From the NCBI RefSeq assembly GCF_001647715.1, contig NZ_CP015600.1:5890001-5954000 (forward strand): a stretch of DNA of 64,000 nt, written 5' to 3'. Source of the DNA: Pseudomonas antarctica. Its GTDB lineage: Bacteria; Pseudomonadota; Gammaproteobacteria; Pseudomonadales; Pseudomonadaceae. The translations under genes and the position numbers were made by a program. Shown piece by piece: positions 32,484 through 36,826 of the stretch. The stretch's first letter is position 1, and the number at the start of each line of letters is the position of its first letter. Under the pieces are notes generated by a model. It was not told where the DNA came from, did not search any database, and was given only the letters and a program-made list of their open reading frames with translations.

Positions 32484-32665
32484 CAGCCCCCATACCACGG
32501 GGCTTGCGCGTCGGGATCAGAGTGGGCCATGTCGCTCATGGATAAGGTTCTGGTATTCACCGGCCCCACACTCGCTCCCAACAAAGACGCTTTCTTTACG
32601 CCTTGCACTGCAATAACCGTAGCCACTTTCGCCGGCCACACAGAATGGCCATGAGGACACACACG

Positions 32666-33961
32666 ATGGACGTCACCGCAACCTTAAGCTTGGGCGATCC
32701 GCTGGAACCCGCACGCAAGGCCACCGCGCAAATGCTGCAAGAGCGTGAGCGCACCTTTTCGCTGCCGCAGCCGTTTTACTCTGATGAGCGGTTGTTTGAT
32801 ATCGACATGCAGGAGATCTTCCAGAAAGAGTGGTTGATCGCCGGCATGACCTGCGAGATCCCCACCAAGGGCAACTACCTGACCCTGCAAGTGGGCAAGA
32901 ACCCGATCATCGTGATCCGTGGCGTCGAAGGCGTGGTGCATGCGTTCCACAACGTGTGCCGCCACCGTGGCTCGCGCTTGTGCACCAGCGAAAAAGGCAA
33001 GGTCGCCAAACTGGTCTGCCACTACCACCAGTGGACCTACGAGCTGGACGGCCGTCTGTTGTTCGCCGGTACCGAGATGGGCGCCGACTTCGACATGAAG
33101 CAGTACGGCCTCAAACCGGTGAACGTGAAGACCGCCGGCGGCTATATCTTCATCAGCCTGGCAGAGAATCCACCGGCTATTGATGACTTCCTGTCGACGC
33201 TGAACCATTACATGGAACCGTACGACATGGAGAACACCAAGGTGGCGATTACCACCACCTTGTTTGAAAAAGCCAACTGGAAGCTGGTGCTGGAAAACAA
33301 CCGCGAGTGCTACCACTGCAACGCGTCGCACCCGGAACTGCTGAAAACCCTGCTGGAATGGGACGACGTTACCGACCCGCGCGCCGACCAGGCCTTCAAG
33401 GACCACGTCGCCGCTTCGGCCGCTGCCTGGGACGCCGAGAAAATCCCTTACGCCCACGCCAGCTTCGGCCTGCGTAACCGTATCGTGCGCATGCCGCTGC
33501 TCAAGGGCACCGTGTCGATGACCCTCGACGGCAAGCAAGGCTGCAAGAAGTTGATGGGCCGCATCAAGAACCCGGACCTGGGCTCGATGCGCATCCTGCA
33601 CCTGCCGCATTCGTGGAACCACTGCATGGGCGACCACATCATCGTGTTCACCGTGTGGCCGATCAGTGCCCAGGAAACCATGGTCACCACCAAGTGGATC
33701 GTGCACAAGGACGCCGTGGAAGGCGTGGACTACGACGTGGACCGCATGCGCCAGGTCTGGGACGCCACCAACGATCAGGACCGTCGCCTGGCCGAAGAGA
33801 ACCAGCGTGGGATCAACTCCACCGCTTACCAACCAGGGCCGTACTCCAAGACGTATGAGTTCGGCGTGGTGAACTTTGTGGATTGGTACAGCGAGCGGTT
33901 GCTGAGCAACCTGGGGGCTGCGCCGGCGCCTTATCTGAAAGGCGTTGCCGTACACGAGTAA
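32666..33961 (+). CDS. gbcA: Glycine betaine monooxygenase, Rieske oxygenase component
   Basis: A 431-residue Rieske non-haem iron oxygenase demethylating glycine betaine to dimethylglycine with release of formaldehyde. The Rieske cluster is bound by NVCRHRGSRLC and LVCHYHQWTY (about 93-120), and mononuclear iron ligands lie in NNRECYHCNASHPELL (about 212-228). The AGGA at 32654-32657 favours the ATG at 32666 over two upstream in-frame ATGs. It pairs with divergent gbcB. Confidence 0.96.
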   Translation: MDVTATLSLGDPLEPARKATAQMLQERERTFSLPQPFYSDERLFDIDMQEIFQKEWLIAGMTCEIPTKGNYLTLQVGKNPIIVIRGVEGVVHAFHNVCRHRGSRLCTSEKGKVAKLVCHYHQWTYELDGRLLFAGTEMGADFDMKQYGLKPVNVKTAGGYIFISLAENPPAIDDFLSTLNHYMEPYDMENTKVAITTTLFEKANWKLVLENNRECYHCNASHPELLKTLLEWDDVTDPRADQAFKDHVAASAAAWDAEKIPYAHASFGLRNRIVRMPLLKGTVSMTLDGKQGCKKLMGRIKNPDLGSMRILHLPHSWNHCMGDHIIVFTVWPISAQETMVTTKWIVHKDAVEGVDYDVDRMRQVWDATNDQDRRLAEENQRGINSTAYQPGPYSKTYEFGVVNFVDWYSERLLSNLGAAPAPYLKGVAVHE

Positions 33962-33987
33962 TGGGCTGACACACTGCCGATCAAAAT

Positions 33988-34076
33988 GTGGGAGCGGGCT
34001 TGCCCGCGATAGCGATTTAACATTCAACCCTTGTGTTGGTTGTTACTCCGTCATCGCGGGCAAGCCCGGCTCCCAC
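33988..34076. repeat. REP doublet (REPIN) after gbcA
   Basis: Arms GTGGGAGCGGGCTTGCCCGC and a copy with an inserted G (GCAAGCCCGGCTCCCAC) follow the gbcA stop; the REP pair may protect or end the transcript. Confidence 0.88.
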
Positions 34077-34155
34077 AGTAGTTTGTAGCTGTACATAATT
34101 CATCCAACACCCTGACAGACCGCTGGCGCCTGCCCTCCAGCCTTTGCCCAACAAC

Positions 34156-34190
34156 TTATCCACAAAGCCACCCACAGCAATTGTGGGCAA
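34156..34190 (+). promoter_or_regulatory. DnaA box 1 with inverted near-match
   Basis: Perfect TTATCCACA at 34156-34164, then TGTGGGCAA at 34182-34190, a two-mismatch DnaA box in inverted orientation. First of four similarly built elements in this gap. Confidence 0.7.
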
Positions 34191-34261
34191 GTGCGCTTCC
34201 CACCTGTAAATAAATGAAGAAAATCCGTGACTTATTCAAGTAGGCCGGTTTAAACCCCACC

Positions 34262-34362
34262 TGATCATTTATTGATCAAATCTTTGAAGGCCACGAATGA
34301 CGTGCCCTGTAGCAGTGCGCGAACACCTTATCCACAGAAGCACCAACAGACTTTGGGGGCAA
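34262..34362 (+). repeat. DnaA-box repeat unit A (AT/GATC tract plus TTATCCACA)
   Basis: A 101 bp unit beginning TGATCATTTATTGATCAA (two GATC sites) and ending in a block with TTATCCACA at 34328-34336, CCAACAGACTTTGGGGGCAA. It repeats 182 bp later with the same internal spacing. GATCAAATCTTTG (34274-34286) is one mismatch from the IHF consensus. Confidence 0.85.
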
Positions 34363-34443
34363 CTTTGCCGGCACTGTGGAAAACCGCGTCAAACCTTCAT
34401 AAAACGGGGGTTTCAGGGTTTTAATTCACTAAACAGGCCGAAT

Positions 34444-34544
34444 TGATCAATTATTGATCAACGCAGTGAGAGCCTTAATCTACGTGGCCTGTAGCCGATA
34501 GCGAACATCTTATCCACAGAAGCGCCAACAGACTTTGGGGGCAA
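34444..34544 (+). repeat. DnaA-box repeat unit B
   Basis: A 101 bp unit with the same plan as unit A: TGATCAATTATTGATCAA, a diverged middle with GGCCTGTAGC, then TTATCCACA at 34510-34518 and the identical CCAACAGACTTTGGGGGCAA end. Confidence 0.85.
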
Positions 34545-34670
34545 GTCGGTACCGGCAAATAAAGTTATTCATGGGAAAACCCCAGGAAAAACCGCTGGTT
34601 AGCCTGGTTGTTTTTCATACAGCGGGCTGCAGGGCTTTATATACCGGGGGTGTGGACAGCCGCGAACAGG

Positions 34671-34705
34671 TTATCCACAGGTGGGTCAACAGGGATTGTG
34701 GGTAA
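34671..34705 (+). promoter_or_regulatory. DnaA box 4 with inverted near-match
   Basis: Perfect TTATCCACA at 34671-34679 followed by TGTGGGTAA (34697-34705), which is one mismatch from an inverted DnaA box. Confidence 0.7.
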
Positions 34706-34716
34706 TCCTACTTTCT

Positions 34717-34820
34717 GTGGGAGTCGGGTTTGCCCGCGATAGAAGCGCCTCGGTCTATCAGTTAGACCGCGGTGATGCCATCGCAGGCAAGCCAGCTCCC
34801 ACACAAGCCCGCTCCCACAG
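34717..34820. repeat. Compound REP element downstream of etfB
   Basis: A left arm with single-base changes (GTGGGAGTCGGGTTTGCCCG) is followed by a TCGCAGGCAAGCCAGCTCCC arm and a fused partial third arm (CAAGCCCGCTCCCAC, 34804-34818). Confidence 0.85.
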
Positions 34821-34824
34821 GGAA

Positions 34825-35595
34825 TCAGCGCACCACGCCTTCTTCTATGAGTAACTTGAGGATGGCGTCTGCGCCCGCTTCAGGGCTAAGCCCCTTGAGC
34901 ACTTGCCCACCGCCGCCGCTGGCTTTGGCCGTGGCAGCCTTCATGCGGTCCGCGCCGCTTTTGGCCTTGATCACCTTGAGGCGCTTGGGCCGGGGCTTGG
35001 CGGGTTGCAACACCGCGCCTGTGAATAACTCGTCTTGCTCAATCTCGACCTCATGGGCTGCCAACTCCCCGCGTTGTGCAGGCCCGTAGGCGCTTTGCCG
35101 TGGTTTGGGCGCGGCGTTATCCACAGTGGCCAGAAACGGCAGACGCACTTTCAAACGTCGCCGTTGACCGCGCGGCAAAGCTTGCAGCACATGGGCCACG
35201 CCGCCGTCGATGGACTCCACCTGCGCCAGCCCGACAATCAACGGCCAGCCCAATTGCTCGGCCAGCAGGAACGGCAACATGCCCGAGCCCTCGCCGGTTT
35301 CGGCCTGGGTGCCGGTAAGCACCACCTGGGCGCCTGCGTCGCGCAAATACTCACTGAGCACCGGCAACGCATCAGCGCCTGCCGGCTGTTCCAACACGTG
35401 CAACTGCGGCAAGCCCATGCCCAGGTAGCTGCGCAAGGTCGGTTCGTGGAGGCTGCCGGCGTGCAGCACCTGCAACTTATCCCCAGCCATTTGCAAGCCC
35501 AGCTCGACGGCACGTGCATCTTGCTCGGCACGGCGCGGGCGACCGGACGTGGGGTGGGCGCCGATGGAAACCAGGCTGATTACAGTCGTCGTCAT
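34825..35595 (-). CDS. Electron transfer flavoprotein beta subunit (dimethylglycine catabolism)
   Basis: A 256-residue ETF beta-type protein. Conserved blocks are the adenine-nucleotide pocket region (VVLTGTQAETGEGSGMLPFLLAEQLG) and the basic GQRRRLKVRLPFLATVDN. It should carry electrons from DgcAB to the quinone pool with the alpha subunit encoded just upstream (10 bp gap). AGGA places the start at 35595; two upstream Met codons are too close or lack a site. The C-terminus carries a Gly/Lys-rich linker (KASGGGGQVLKG) longer than in classic EtfB. Confidence 0.9.
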   Translation of the reverse strand: MTTTVISLVSIGAHPTSGRPRRAEQDARAVELGLQMAGDKLQVLHAGSLHEPTLRSYLGMGLPQLHVLEQPAGADALPVLSEYLRDAGAQVVLTGTQAETGEGSGMLPFLLAEQLGWPLIVGLAQVESIDGGVAHVLQALPRGQRRRLKVRLPFLATVDNAAPKPRQSAYGPAQRGELAAHEVEIEQDELFTGAVLQPAKPRPKRLKVIKAKSGADRMKAATAKASGGGGQVLKGLSPEAGADAILKLLIEEGVVR

Positions 35596-35605
35596 GGTCA
35601 TGTTC

Positions 35606-36826
35606 CTAAGCTGCATCGCGCTTGGCGCCGTTGCGGTAAACCTGCACCGCATCGATCAAGGCTTGCAGAATCGCGGCGCTTTCGCCGATCACCGACAGGT
35701 CGGCACGCTTGATCATGTCGCAGCCAGGGTCCAGGTTGATCGCCACCACCTTGTCGCAGGCACCGATACCTTGCAGGTGCTGGATCGCCCCGGAAATCCC
35801 CACGGCTACATACACCCGCGCCGTGACCCAGGTGCCGCTGGCGCCGACCTGGCGATCACGCGCCATAAAGCCGTCGTCCACCGCCACCCGCGAGGCGCCT
35901 TCGGTCGCACCGAGGGCGGCTGCAGTCTGGTGGAACAGTGCCCAGTCCTTCACGCCGTTACCGCCAGAGAAAATAAACTCTGCTTCGGCCATGGGAATCG
36001 CCGCCGGGTCGACTGCCACGGCGCCGAGATCTTCGATCCGCGACAAGCTGCGCGCCAAGGGTGTGGATAACTCCACGGGCAACACTTCATGGCGCGTGTC
36101 GCTGACCGGATCGGCACATTCGACTGCGGCCAGAATCAAGCGTGGCAACGGGCGAGCCATATCCTCCTGGCCCGCACCGGCACGGCCGATGCACTCCTCA
36201 CCTTTGATTTGCCAGACCCGCGTGGCCGGGCGTTCCTTGAGGCTCGCAGCAAAACGCCGGCCCAACTCGCCACCACCGCTGCGACTGTCCGGCAGCAACC
36301 AATGGCGCGGGTTGAACTGGTTATCCACAGCCCGCAGGCCCTGGACGCGTTGCTCCGGTGAATAACCGTCGAATGCGTGGCCTTCGAGCACCAGCAGGCG
36401 ATCAACACCCGCCGTCGCAAAGGCGCTCTCCTTGTGTTCGCCGAACACCACCGCCAGCACGGCGCCGTCGCTGCCGGCGAGTTGCCGGGCCAGGCCGAGC
36501 ACGTCGCGGTCGTGGCTGCTCAGGCGGCCGCCGACCATGTCGGGCACCACGTTGATGTAGAACGCGGGCGCCGGTACCTGATGCAGCGGCAATTGCACCT
36601 CCACCGCCGCCGTACGCTTGGCCGCGCCGCCCTGTTGGGCGCCGCTGCGGTCAATACGCTTGAGGCCGTTGGGGCCGATAAAACCGATGCCATGCAGGTT
36701 TTTACGGATGACACCGTTAGGCCCCATCCAACTGTGTTGCAGCGGCTGCATCGCCGCATGCAAGGGGTGCAGGCGGTTACGGGCGATCCATTCGGCCCGT
36801 GGATCGCGGCGGATAATGTCGCTCAT
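35606..36826 (-). CDS. Electron transfer flavoprotein alpha subunit (dimethylglycine catabolism)
   Basis: A 406-residue ETF alpha-type protein with an unusually long N-terminus. The C-terminal FAD motif is clear: ARDRQVGASGTWVTARVYVA, GISGAIQHLQGI and INLDPGCDMIKRADLSVIG. It overlaps dgcB by 4 bp (ATGA), so it is dedicated to DgcAB. The N-terminal 100 residues (RRDPRAEWIARNRLHPLH...) are an extension compared with classical EtfA of about 310 residues. Confidence 0.92.
   Translation of the reverse strand: MSDIIRRDPRAEWIARNRLHPLHAAMQPLQHSWMGPNGVIRKNLHGIGFIGPNGLKRIDRSGAQQGGAAKRTAAVEVQLPLHQVPAPAFYINVVPDMVGGRLSSHDRDVLGLARQLAGSDGAVLAVVFGEHKESAFATAGVDRLLVLEGHAFDGYSPEQRVQGLRAVDNQFNPRHWLLPDSRSGGGELGRRFAASLKERPATRVWQIKGEECIGRAGAGQEDMARPLPRLILAAVECADPVSDTRHEVLPVELSTPLARSLSRIEDLGAVAVDPAAIPMAEAEFIFSGGNGVKDWALFHQTAAALGATEGASRVAVDDGFMARDRQVGASGTWVTARVYVAVGISGAIQHLQGIGACDKVVAINLDPGCDMIKRADLSVIGESAAILQALIDAVQVYRNGAKRDAA

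What the first reader, a model, noticed from the sequence alone, without database searches (positions are those of the whole stretch)
34140..34710. Cluster of four perfect DnaA boxes in repeated units: a candidate DnaA-titration or origin-control locus
The gbcA-etf gap contains TTATCCACA, the strongest DnaA-binding nonamer, at 34156, 34328, 34510 and 34671, all in one orientation and 160-182 bp apart. A given 9-mer is expected about once per 262 kb per strand, so four in 0.52 kb is far beyond chance. Two units (34262-34362, 34444-34544) repeat at 182 bp with AT-rich TGATCA-n-TGATCA tracts and a near IHF site; each box has an inverted near-match or a conserved G-rich tail (CCAACAGACTTTGGGGGCAA). 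E. coli datA and DARS loci are non-coding DnaA-box clusters with an IHF site that set initiation timing. I know of no such locus described at this position in Pseudomonas.
Basis: partly seen in the sequence, partly recalled or inferred. Interest (0 to 1): 0.8.

Follow-up and report, generated by a model that had tools for sequence, protein, structure and literature searches.

The report
Conserved DnaA-control array near origin
A stretch of non-coding DNA found at the same place in many Pseudomonas chromosomes carries four copies of a binding pattern for the protein that starts chromosome copying, spaced exactly as in known E. coli sites that recharge this protein, so it is probably a control site for when the chromosome is copied.

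Summary
The four TTATCCACA boxes are real and form this genome's largest perfect-box group outside oriC in 600-2500 bp windows. The gap lies between convergent genes gbcA and etfB, so it is no promoter for either. It is conserved: 66 of 80 GbcA-anchored Pseudomonas loci carry 3-5 cores within 3.5 kb of gbcA, one carries two, and the other 13 carry cores 7-9 kb downstream. In 26 of 28 genomes it lies 7-10% of the chromosome upstream of dnaA.

New point: every box belongs to a 35-bp core with a second box at +12 and an inverted box at +26, exactly the three-box geometry of E. coli DARS1 and DARS2. Cores in other gammaproteobacteria bridge the two; a model built from them finds E. coli DARS1 but not DARS2. 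The TGATCA tracts are conserved Fis-consensus sites; IHF is not supported.

So this is a DnaA-control locus with DARS-type cores. Boxes I and II are weak and the position resembles datA, so reactivation versus inactivation or titration stays undecided. New variant of a known kind.

The parts
34156..34190 (+). DARS-type core 1: strong box 34156-34164 (+), second box 34168-34176 (+, CCACCCACA), inverted box 34182-34190 (-, TTGCCCACA). Read on the - strand these are boxes I, II, III at 0/14/26
   Evidence: model R1 E 1.5e-10, model R2 E 5.8e-7
34328..34362 (+). DARS-type core 2: strong box 34328-34336, weak box 34340-34348 (GCACCAACA), inverted weak box 34354-34362 (TTGCCCCCA on -)
   Evidence: R1 E 1.6e-10, R2 E 2.8e-5
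34510..34544 (+). DARS-type core 3: strong box 34510-34518, weak box 34522-34530 (GCGCCAACA), inverted weak box 34536-34544
   Evidence: R1 E 1.3e-10, R2 E 2e-4
34671..34705 (+). DARS-type core 4: strong box 34671-34679, weak box 34683-34691 (GGGTCAACA), inverted box 34697-34705 (TTACCCACA on -)
   Evidence: R1 E 1.5e-10, R2 E 1.8e-6
34263..34277 (.). Fis-consensus site GATCATTTATTGATC (GNNYANNNNNTRNNC), 65 bp before strong box 2
   Evidence: conserved at 65-66 bp before a strong box in related clusters
34445..34459 (.). Fis-consensus site GATCAATTATTGATC, 65 bp before strong box 3
34375..34383 (-). additional one-mismatch box TTTTCCACA after core 2, conserved in relatives
34216..34236 (.). 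near-invariant block GAAGAAAATCCGTGACTTATT of unknown function between cores 1 and 2
34287..34313 (.). conserved block (relatives: AAGCCACGTATTACGTGGCCTGCAGC) before core 2, variant before core 3; function unknown
35117..35125 (+). perfect DnaA box inside etfB (Val-Asp-Asn codons), synonymous codons conserved above background
36062..36070 (-). perfect DnaA box inside etfA (TTA-TCC-ACA, Leu-Ser-Thr); synonymous test inconclusive (2 rows)
36321..36329 (+). perfect DnaA box inside etfA (Val-Asp-Asn codons), synonymous codons conserved, in a partly conserved neighbourhood
32651..33961 (+). flanking gene gbcA (glycine betaine monooxygenase oxygenase subunit), 3' end faces the gap
   Evidence: NF058607, 805.7 bits, cut-off 670
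34825..35589 (-). flanking gene etfB (electron transfer flavoprotein subunit beta), 3' end faces the gap
   Evidence: NF051844, 411.5 bits, cut-off 350
33987..34078 (.). REP-type inverted repeat left of the array (another to the right, 34715-34820), poorly conserved in relatives
   Evidence: the name REP is recalled

Best explanation
A non-coding chromosomal DnaA-control element built from four tandem DARS-type cores with Fis sites. SHOWN (sequence): four cores, each one strong DnaA box plus a same-strand weak box at +12 and an inverted weak box at +26, i.e. boxes I/II/III at 0(+), 14(-), 26(-) on the other strand, the geometry of E. coli DARS1 and DARS2; two perfect Fis-consensus sites 65 bp before strong boxes 2 and 3; location between convergent genes, ~8% of the chromosome from oriC; conservation across Pseudomonas. 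INFERRED: DnaA occupies the strong box and recruits DnaA to the weak sites; Fis bends the DNA between cores; DnaA on the opposed boxes I and II meets head to head, which in E. coli DARS releases ADP and regenerates ATP-DnaA. Being close to oriC, the element doubles early after initiation and sets how much active DnaA is available for the next round. Odds as I see them: a selected DnaA-binding control locus ~0.9; DARS-type reactivation as main activity ~0.5; inactivation or titration ~0.4.
For: Geometry identical to both E. coli DARS cores in 4 of 4 units of the window and in three more cores of the same genome. In 110 related loci, of 622 perfect boxes 367 have the inverted element at offset 26; the other 33 offsets tested (11-44) total 56, 45 of them at offset 36, unexplained. 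R1 cores in 137 of 149 Pseudomonas genomes, four or more in 108 of 149. R1 matches in 96 of 369 gammaproteobacterial genomes (own one included) at E <= 0.01 per genome; the 29 cores read mostly follow YTATCCACAGAGTTATCCACAGNNTTTGTGGATAA; none of the 29 loci has a dnaA, dnaN, mnmG, mioC, rpmH or rnpA match within the fetched flanks. Model R2 built from 28 of these, without Pseudomonas or E. coli, finds E. coli DARS1 (E 2.7e-5) and all four window cores. Strict Fis sites in 78 of 86 clusters, 153 of 173 of them 65-66 bp before a strong box, against 0.67 per cluster in shuffles. Box codons in etfB conserved at synonymous positions (56, 54, 56 of 57 against a background mean of 0.65).
Against: Boxes II and I are weak here by the E. 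coli consensus, whereas they are the essential pair in DARS (PMC10380432, section 10). R1 does not find E. coli DARS1 or DARS2 at E <= 10; R2 does not find DARS2, and R2 gives partial matches to ordinary box pairs in oriC and datA up to 16-17.6 bits against 21.5 for DARS1. No IHF consensus site is conserved, although DARS2 needs IHF. Position (8%) is unlike DARS1 (32.9%) and DARS2 (20.6%) and like datA (10.1%). The genome has two better DARS1-like cores at 29% and 34%, so the array may do something else. The same conservation and spacing would also fit a datA-like site.
Confidence: 0.5

Rival explanations
1. datA-like negative element: DnaA bound at the strong boxes, 160-180 bp apart in one orientation, is brought together by DNA bending (Fis or an unrecognised IHF site) and its ATP is hydrolysed, so early duplication of the site blocks re-initiation.
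For: Position 8% from oriC against 10.1% for datA. Strong boxes 161-182 bp apart in one orientation; datA boxes 2 and 3 lie 162 bp apart. Weak head-to-tail sites about 11-12 bp from the strong box, as datA box 7 to box 2. Canonical DARS cores exist elsewhere in the genome.
Against: No conserved IHF site, which is essential at datA. datA itself shows no 0/12/26 triple in the scan, while the four units do.
Confidence: 0.28
2. Passive titration sink: the array merely holds many DnaA molecules near oriC, one part of an origin-centred gradient of DnaA boxes; geometry within the cores is incidental.
For: 164 perfect boxes against 19 for the reversed control; 140 of 152 boxes of C1 (11 tandem-repeat boxes left out) lie within 1.4 Mb of oriC; E. 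coli also has boxes enriched near oriC and titration evidence (PMC12371093, abstract, section 6 and part of the discussion).
Against: A sink needs no exact spacing of weak boxes, no Fis sites and no cross-genus core, all of which are conserved.
Confidence: 0.12
3. Transcriptional or RNA element: a DnaA-regulated promoter, terminator region or small RNA gene in the gap.
For: DnaA acts as a transcription factor elsewhere (general knowledge); strong non-coding conservation is also typical of RNA genes.
Against: Both neighbours end at the gap; no sigma-70-like promoter found; no Rfam match near a gathering score; RNA folding z-score -1.55, 1 of 20 shuffles folds as well; conservation follows DnaA boxes and Fis sites.
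Confidence: 0.05
4. Chance or repeat artefact: a DnaA box carried inside a duplicated or REP-like repeat.
For: The units are repeats and REP-type elements flank them.
Against: The array is conserved over the genus while the REP-type parts are not; the core occurs outside Pseudomonas.
Confidence: 0.02

Closest known systems
DARS1 and DARS2 of Escherichia coli (DnaA-reactivating sequences)
   Same: Three-box core with boxes at 0(+), 14(-), 26(-), non-coding, and (DARS2) Fis sites (PMC5742627 and PMC8682772, passages).
   Different: Four cores in tandem instead of one; box III strong, II and I weak; no conserved IHF consensus; 8% instead of 20.6-32.9% of the chromosome from oriC.
datA of Escherichia coli
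   Same: Non-coding box cluster near oriC (10.1% there, 8% here), same-orientation strong boxes about 160-180 bp apart with a bend site between.
   Different: No conserved IHF site; has the DARS triple geometry that datA lacks.
DnaA-box clusters of Bacillus subtilis and Streptomyces coelicolor described as analogous to datA
   Same: Chromosomal DnaA-box clusters outside oriC (PMC5742627, one passage).
   Different: Not compared here at sequence level.
DARS-like sequences reported in many proteobacterial species
   Same: PMC10380432 (section 10) states that sequences similar to DARS1 and DARS2 are conserved in many proteobacterial genomes; the two canonical cores found here at 29% and 34% would fit.
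   Different: The primary paper was not held, so whether it lists Pseudomonas or this array could not be checked.

Membership tests
DARS | three DnaA boxes, box I opposed to II and III, with the spacing shared by DARS1 and DARS2 | tested here: met
   4 of 4 units at 0/14/26 on the - strand, as in E. coli. The assignment of the E. coli boxes is mine, from a <=2-mismatch scan and the description in PMC5742627
DARS | boxes I and II are functional DnaA sites (essential head-to-head pair) | tested here: inconclusive
   conserved but weak: 1-3 mismatches (I) and 3-4 (II) to TTWTNCACA, counted by eye
DARS | non-coding chromosomal site | tested here: met
   gap between convergent gbcA and etfB; longest ORF over a core 57 aa
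DARS (DARS2 type) | Fis-binding sites | tested here: met
   consensus only: 78 of 86 clusters; binding not tested
DARS (DARS2 type) | IHF-binding sites | tested here: not met
   0-mismatch site in 1 of 96 clusters, <=1 mismatch in 53 of 96, scattered. DARS1 does not need IHF (PMC5742627, passage)
DARS | promotes ADP release from DnaA | not testable with these tools
   needs purified DnaA
DARS | mid-replichore location as in E. coli (20.6% and 32.9%) | tested here: not met
   median 8.3% in 28 genomes; a positional trait, not a strict definition
datA | IHF site between DnaA boxes 2 and 3 | tested here: not met
   the datA scan does find its IHF site at L120:2310, so the scan works
datA | oriC-proximal cluster of DnaA boxes | tested here: met
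[quoted passage not shown]
   needs purified proteins
oriC | location beside dnaA | tested here: not met
   oriC-like boxes lie at C1:215-487 beside dnaA; the array is 518 kb away

The most novel reading that the evidence does not exclude
Pseudomonas carries, at a fixed ~8% distance from oriC, a second class of DARS-type element: a tandem array in which each DARS core has its affinity moved from the opposed pair I/II to box III, coupled to Fis instead of IHF, and continued by synonymously constrained DnaA boxes in the neighbouring etf genes. It would be an origin-proximal DnaA control centre distinct in wiring from both datA and DARS, perhaps able to switch between holding and recharging DnaA with growth phase through Fis.
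Probability: 0.3. Interest if true: 0.8.

Novelty: new variant of a known kind. Interest (0 to 1): 0.64.

Why it matters
Nearly all knowledge of non-oriC DnaA control sites comes from E. coli. A locus with DARS-type cores conserved in 137 of 149 sampled Pseudomonas genomes at core level gives a ready place to test whether chromosomal position, core geometry or plain box number sets initiation timing, in a genus that (recalled, not tested) lacks Dam/SeqA sequestration. The shared core in other gammaproteobacteria suggests that DARS geometry is an old feature that can be found by sequence alone.

Tried and rejected
IHF reading of the TGATCA tracts: rejected as conserved feature; Fis consensus fits. 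Promoter, RNA gene and coding readings: no support. Synteny with E. coli DARS neighbours: E. coli bioC, bioD, uvrB, rppH, mutH, ygdQ and others searched by tblastn against 29 class-level loci and further Pseudomonas loci; only uvrB matched (L174 C-terminal end, about 1.1 kb from the core, and a weak 33% piece in L179), not in the DARS1 arrangement, so no synteny. R1 against E. coli DARS1/2: nothing at E <= 10. R2 against DARS2: not found. E. coli whole chromosome with R2: not held, not searched. Synonymous test at the 36062 box: only 2 rows, no use. BLAST of the gap against plasmids: one record, REP-containing part only (query 767-872), no array. Literature: ten searches gave no paper describing this locus; one asked for gbcA with DnaA and found 0 papers. 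The library lacks most subscription papers.

Rows left out: 11 tandem-repeat boxes at C1:150030-158850 and the one box on C2; 7 of 35 genomes with a dnaA position (G003, G015, G020, G065, G104, G110, G132) from the distance table, because one search gave no long array match there. In four of these seven, core or short BLAST matches lie 326-384 kb (5.9-7.5%) from dnaA, on the downstream side by the coordinates. L167 was left out of model R2 as a near copy of L166. The 110 loci contain some genomes twice (two collections); related species are not independent.

Full report
1. Observation. The four perfect boxes are at the stated places, all on the + strand, 172, 182 and 161 bp apart. Allowing for the high local box density around oriC, the expected number of such groups is 4e-4 (5e-5 on one strand). 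In 600-, 1000- and 2500-bp windows the group is the largest outside oriC; with the boxes at 35117, 36062 and 36321 it reaches 7 in 2.2 kb. Genome-wide there are 164 perfect boxes against 19 for the reversed control, and 140 of the 152 counted on C1 lie within 1.4 Mb of its start, where oriC and dnaA are.

2. Setting. The gap lies between the 3' ends of gbcA (NF058607, 805.7 bits, cut-off 670) and etfB (NF051844, 411.5 bits, cut-off 350). No promoter-like site, no Rfam match near a gathering score, no marked RNA folding (z -1.55) and no long ORF over a core was found. REP-type repeats lie on both sides but are poorly conserved.

3. Conservation. BLASTN with the gap matched 118 of 149 sampled Pseudomonas genomes, often over short parts only. 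The 30 best loci all have four or more perfect boxes at nearly constant spacing. Mean identity to the window base is 0.84-0.92 over the best 50-bp stretches of the array against 0.70-0.79 in the 3' part of gbcA and about 0.4 in the REP-type parts. An unbiased look from the neighbour gene: the 80 best GbcA relatives in named Pseudomonas genomes carry 3-5 cores within 3.5 kb in 66, two in one and none in 13. The 14 genomes with none or two were searched whole and all have cores; by coordinates the nearest core of the 13 lies 7,195-7,462 bp downstream of gbcA in 12 and 8,990 bp in one. That these are the same contigs follows from the coordinates, and for L088, L092 and L104 also from contig length.

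4. Position. In 28 (near-)complete genomes with a clear array match and a dnaA position, the array is upstream of dnaA in 27; 26 lie at 7.0-9.9% of the chromosome on that side, G029 at 17.0%, and G018 at 9.2% on the other side (8 of 28 genome lengths are rounded). Seven further genomes of the 35 searched for dnaA were not used; in four of them core or short matches lie at 5.9-7.5%.

5. Anatomy. Each unit reads, from the strong box, TTATCCACA - 3 bp - weak box ending in MACA - 5 bp - inverted weak box (TGKGGGYAA) at +26, usually with CGAACA about 3-8 bp before the strong box. In 110 related loci with 622 perfect boxes, 367 have the inverted element at offset 26; all other offsets from 11 to 44 together give 56, of which 45 at offset 36 remain unexplained.

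6. Comparison with E. coli. In MG1655 the DARS1 region has boxes at 1608(+), 1622(-), 1634(-) of L118 and the DARS2 region at 2136(+), 2150(-), 2162(-) of L119: offsets 0, 14, 26 in both. Read on its - strand each Pseudomonas unit has boxes at 0(+), 14(-), 26(-), the same. Reviews state that box I is opposed to II and III, that the spacing is the same in DARS1 and DARS2 (PMC5742627, passages), and that the head-to-head pair I/II is characteristic and essential (PMC10380432, section 10).

7. Bridge. A sequence-only model of 50 Pseudomonas cores (R1) gives seven significant places in this genome: the four units, two at C1:669 kb and one at C1:5610 kb, plus a weak one at 800.8 kb. In the genus it matches 137 of 149 genomes at E <= 0.001, 108 of 149 with four or more cores. 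In the class it matches 96 of 369 genomes (own included) at E <= 0.01, where about 4 would be expected if the rough E-values hold. The 29 best class-level cores were read; most look like YTATCCACAGAGTTATCCACAGNNTTTGTGGATAA, three good boxes in the same geometry; 24 of 29 lie outside any ORF of 100 aa or more, and none is near dnaA or other oriC neighbours in the fetched flank. A second model from 28 of them (R2) finds E. coli DARS1 at E 2.7e-5 (21.5 bits) and the four window units at 5.8e-7 to 2e-4, but not DARS2; ordinary box pairs in own oriC, datA and E. coli oriC give partial matches of 15.7-16.8 bits, and one in L034 17.6 bits. The margin is therefore real but modest. R1 itself does not find the E. 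coli sites.

8. Fis, not IHF. The two TGATCA tracts are perfect, self-complementary matches to the Fis consensus. Of 86 clusters with four or more boxes, 78 have at least one strict Fis site; 153 of 173 sites lie 65 or 66 bp before a strong box, against 0.67 sites per cluster in shuffles. IHF: 0-mismatch in 1 of 96 clusters, <=1 mismatch in 53 of 96 at scattered places, while the same scan finds the datA IHF site. Fis and IHF activate DARS2 in E. coli (PMC4245941 and PMC8682772, passages).

9. Spread into etf genes. In etfB the Val-Asp-Asn codons that form the box at 35117 are GTG, GAT, AAC in 56, 54 and 56 of 57 loci, against a mean major-codon share of 0.65 in 40 neighbouring columns (1 of 40 at 0.9 or more). 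In etfA the box at 36321 shows 43, 42 and 43 of 43 against 0.71, but 28% of its neighbours are also at 0.9 or more. Loci where the peptide pattern did not match are not counted (57 and 43 of 80 used).

10. Other cores in this genome. R2 also finds C1:4586208-4586237 (-; TTGTCCACT-GAG-TTATCCACA-GCTTC-TGTGGATTG) and C1:2191913-2191942 (+; CTGTTCACA-AGG-TTATCCACA-ATTTG-TGTGGATAA), at 28.8% and 34.0% of the chromosome from oriC, like E. coli DARS1 at 32.9%. These look like the ordinary DARS of the genus, which makes the origin-proximal array a separate, second kind.

11. Interpretation. The array is a selected DnaA-binding control locus (about 0.9). Core geometry, the bridge to DARS1 and Fis favour DARS-type reactivation (about 0.5). 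Position, weak boxes I/II and the 160-180 bp spacing of strong boxes favour a datA-like or titration role (about 0.4 together). Sequence cannot decide this; the assays named would.

12. Novelty. DARS-like sequences in many proteobacteria are already stated in print (PMC10380432, section 10, citing a paper not held). Ten library searches found no description of this Pseudomonas array. Tandem cores, origin-proximal position and shifted box strengths make it a new variant of a known kind.

Noticed in passing
outside the window, own genome C1:4586203-4586237 (L195) and C1:2191908-2191942 (L196): Two canonical E. coli-like DARS cores at 28.8% and 34.0% of the chromosome from oriC; the first recurs with the same score in 22 of 40 Pseudomonas genomes (capped list), the second is part of a longer palindrome with four boxes in relatives.
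   Followed up: partly
own genome C1:6360481-6360539 (L198): Five DnaA-like boxes head to tail with an exact 12-bp period, 81 kb from oriC; similar partial matches are listed in other genomes but were not read.
   Followed up: no
own genome, whole C1: Perfect DnaA boxes form a strong gradient: 140 of 152 counted lie within 1.4 Mb of oriC, 11-12 in the remaining chromosome.
   Followed up: partly
window 35117, 36062, 36321: Perfect DnaA boxes inside etfB and etfA; the first two-codon-degenerate sites are kept at synonymous positions, and the one at 36062 uses the rare-looking TTA leucine codon (rarity of TTA recalled).
   Followed up: partly
own genome C1:150030-158850: Eleven perfect boxes at multiples of 630 bp, probably inside a tandemly repeated coding region.
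   Followed up: no
window 34216-34236 and 34287-34313: Two near-invariant blocks in the array that match neither DnaA, Fis nor IHF consensus.
   Followed up: no
L045, L088, L090, L092, L093, L095, L098, L099, L104, L110, L112, L115, L117: In 13 of 80 GbcA loci about 7 kb (9 kb in one) separates gbcA from the array, apparently inserted genes; the array itself is kept.
   Followed up: no
own genome C1:669256-669655 (L034) and C1:5610014-5610048 (L035): Two smaller loci with the same core type at 10.4% and 12.9% from oriC, one on each side.
   Followed up: partly
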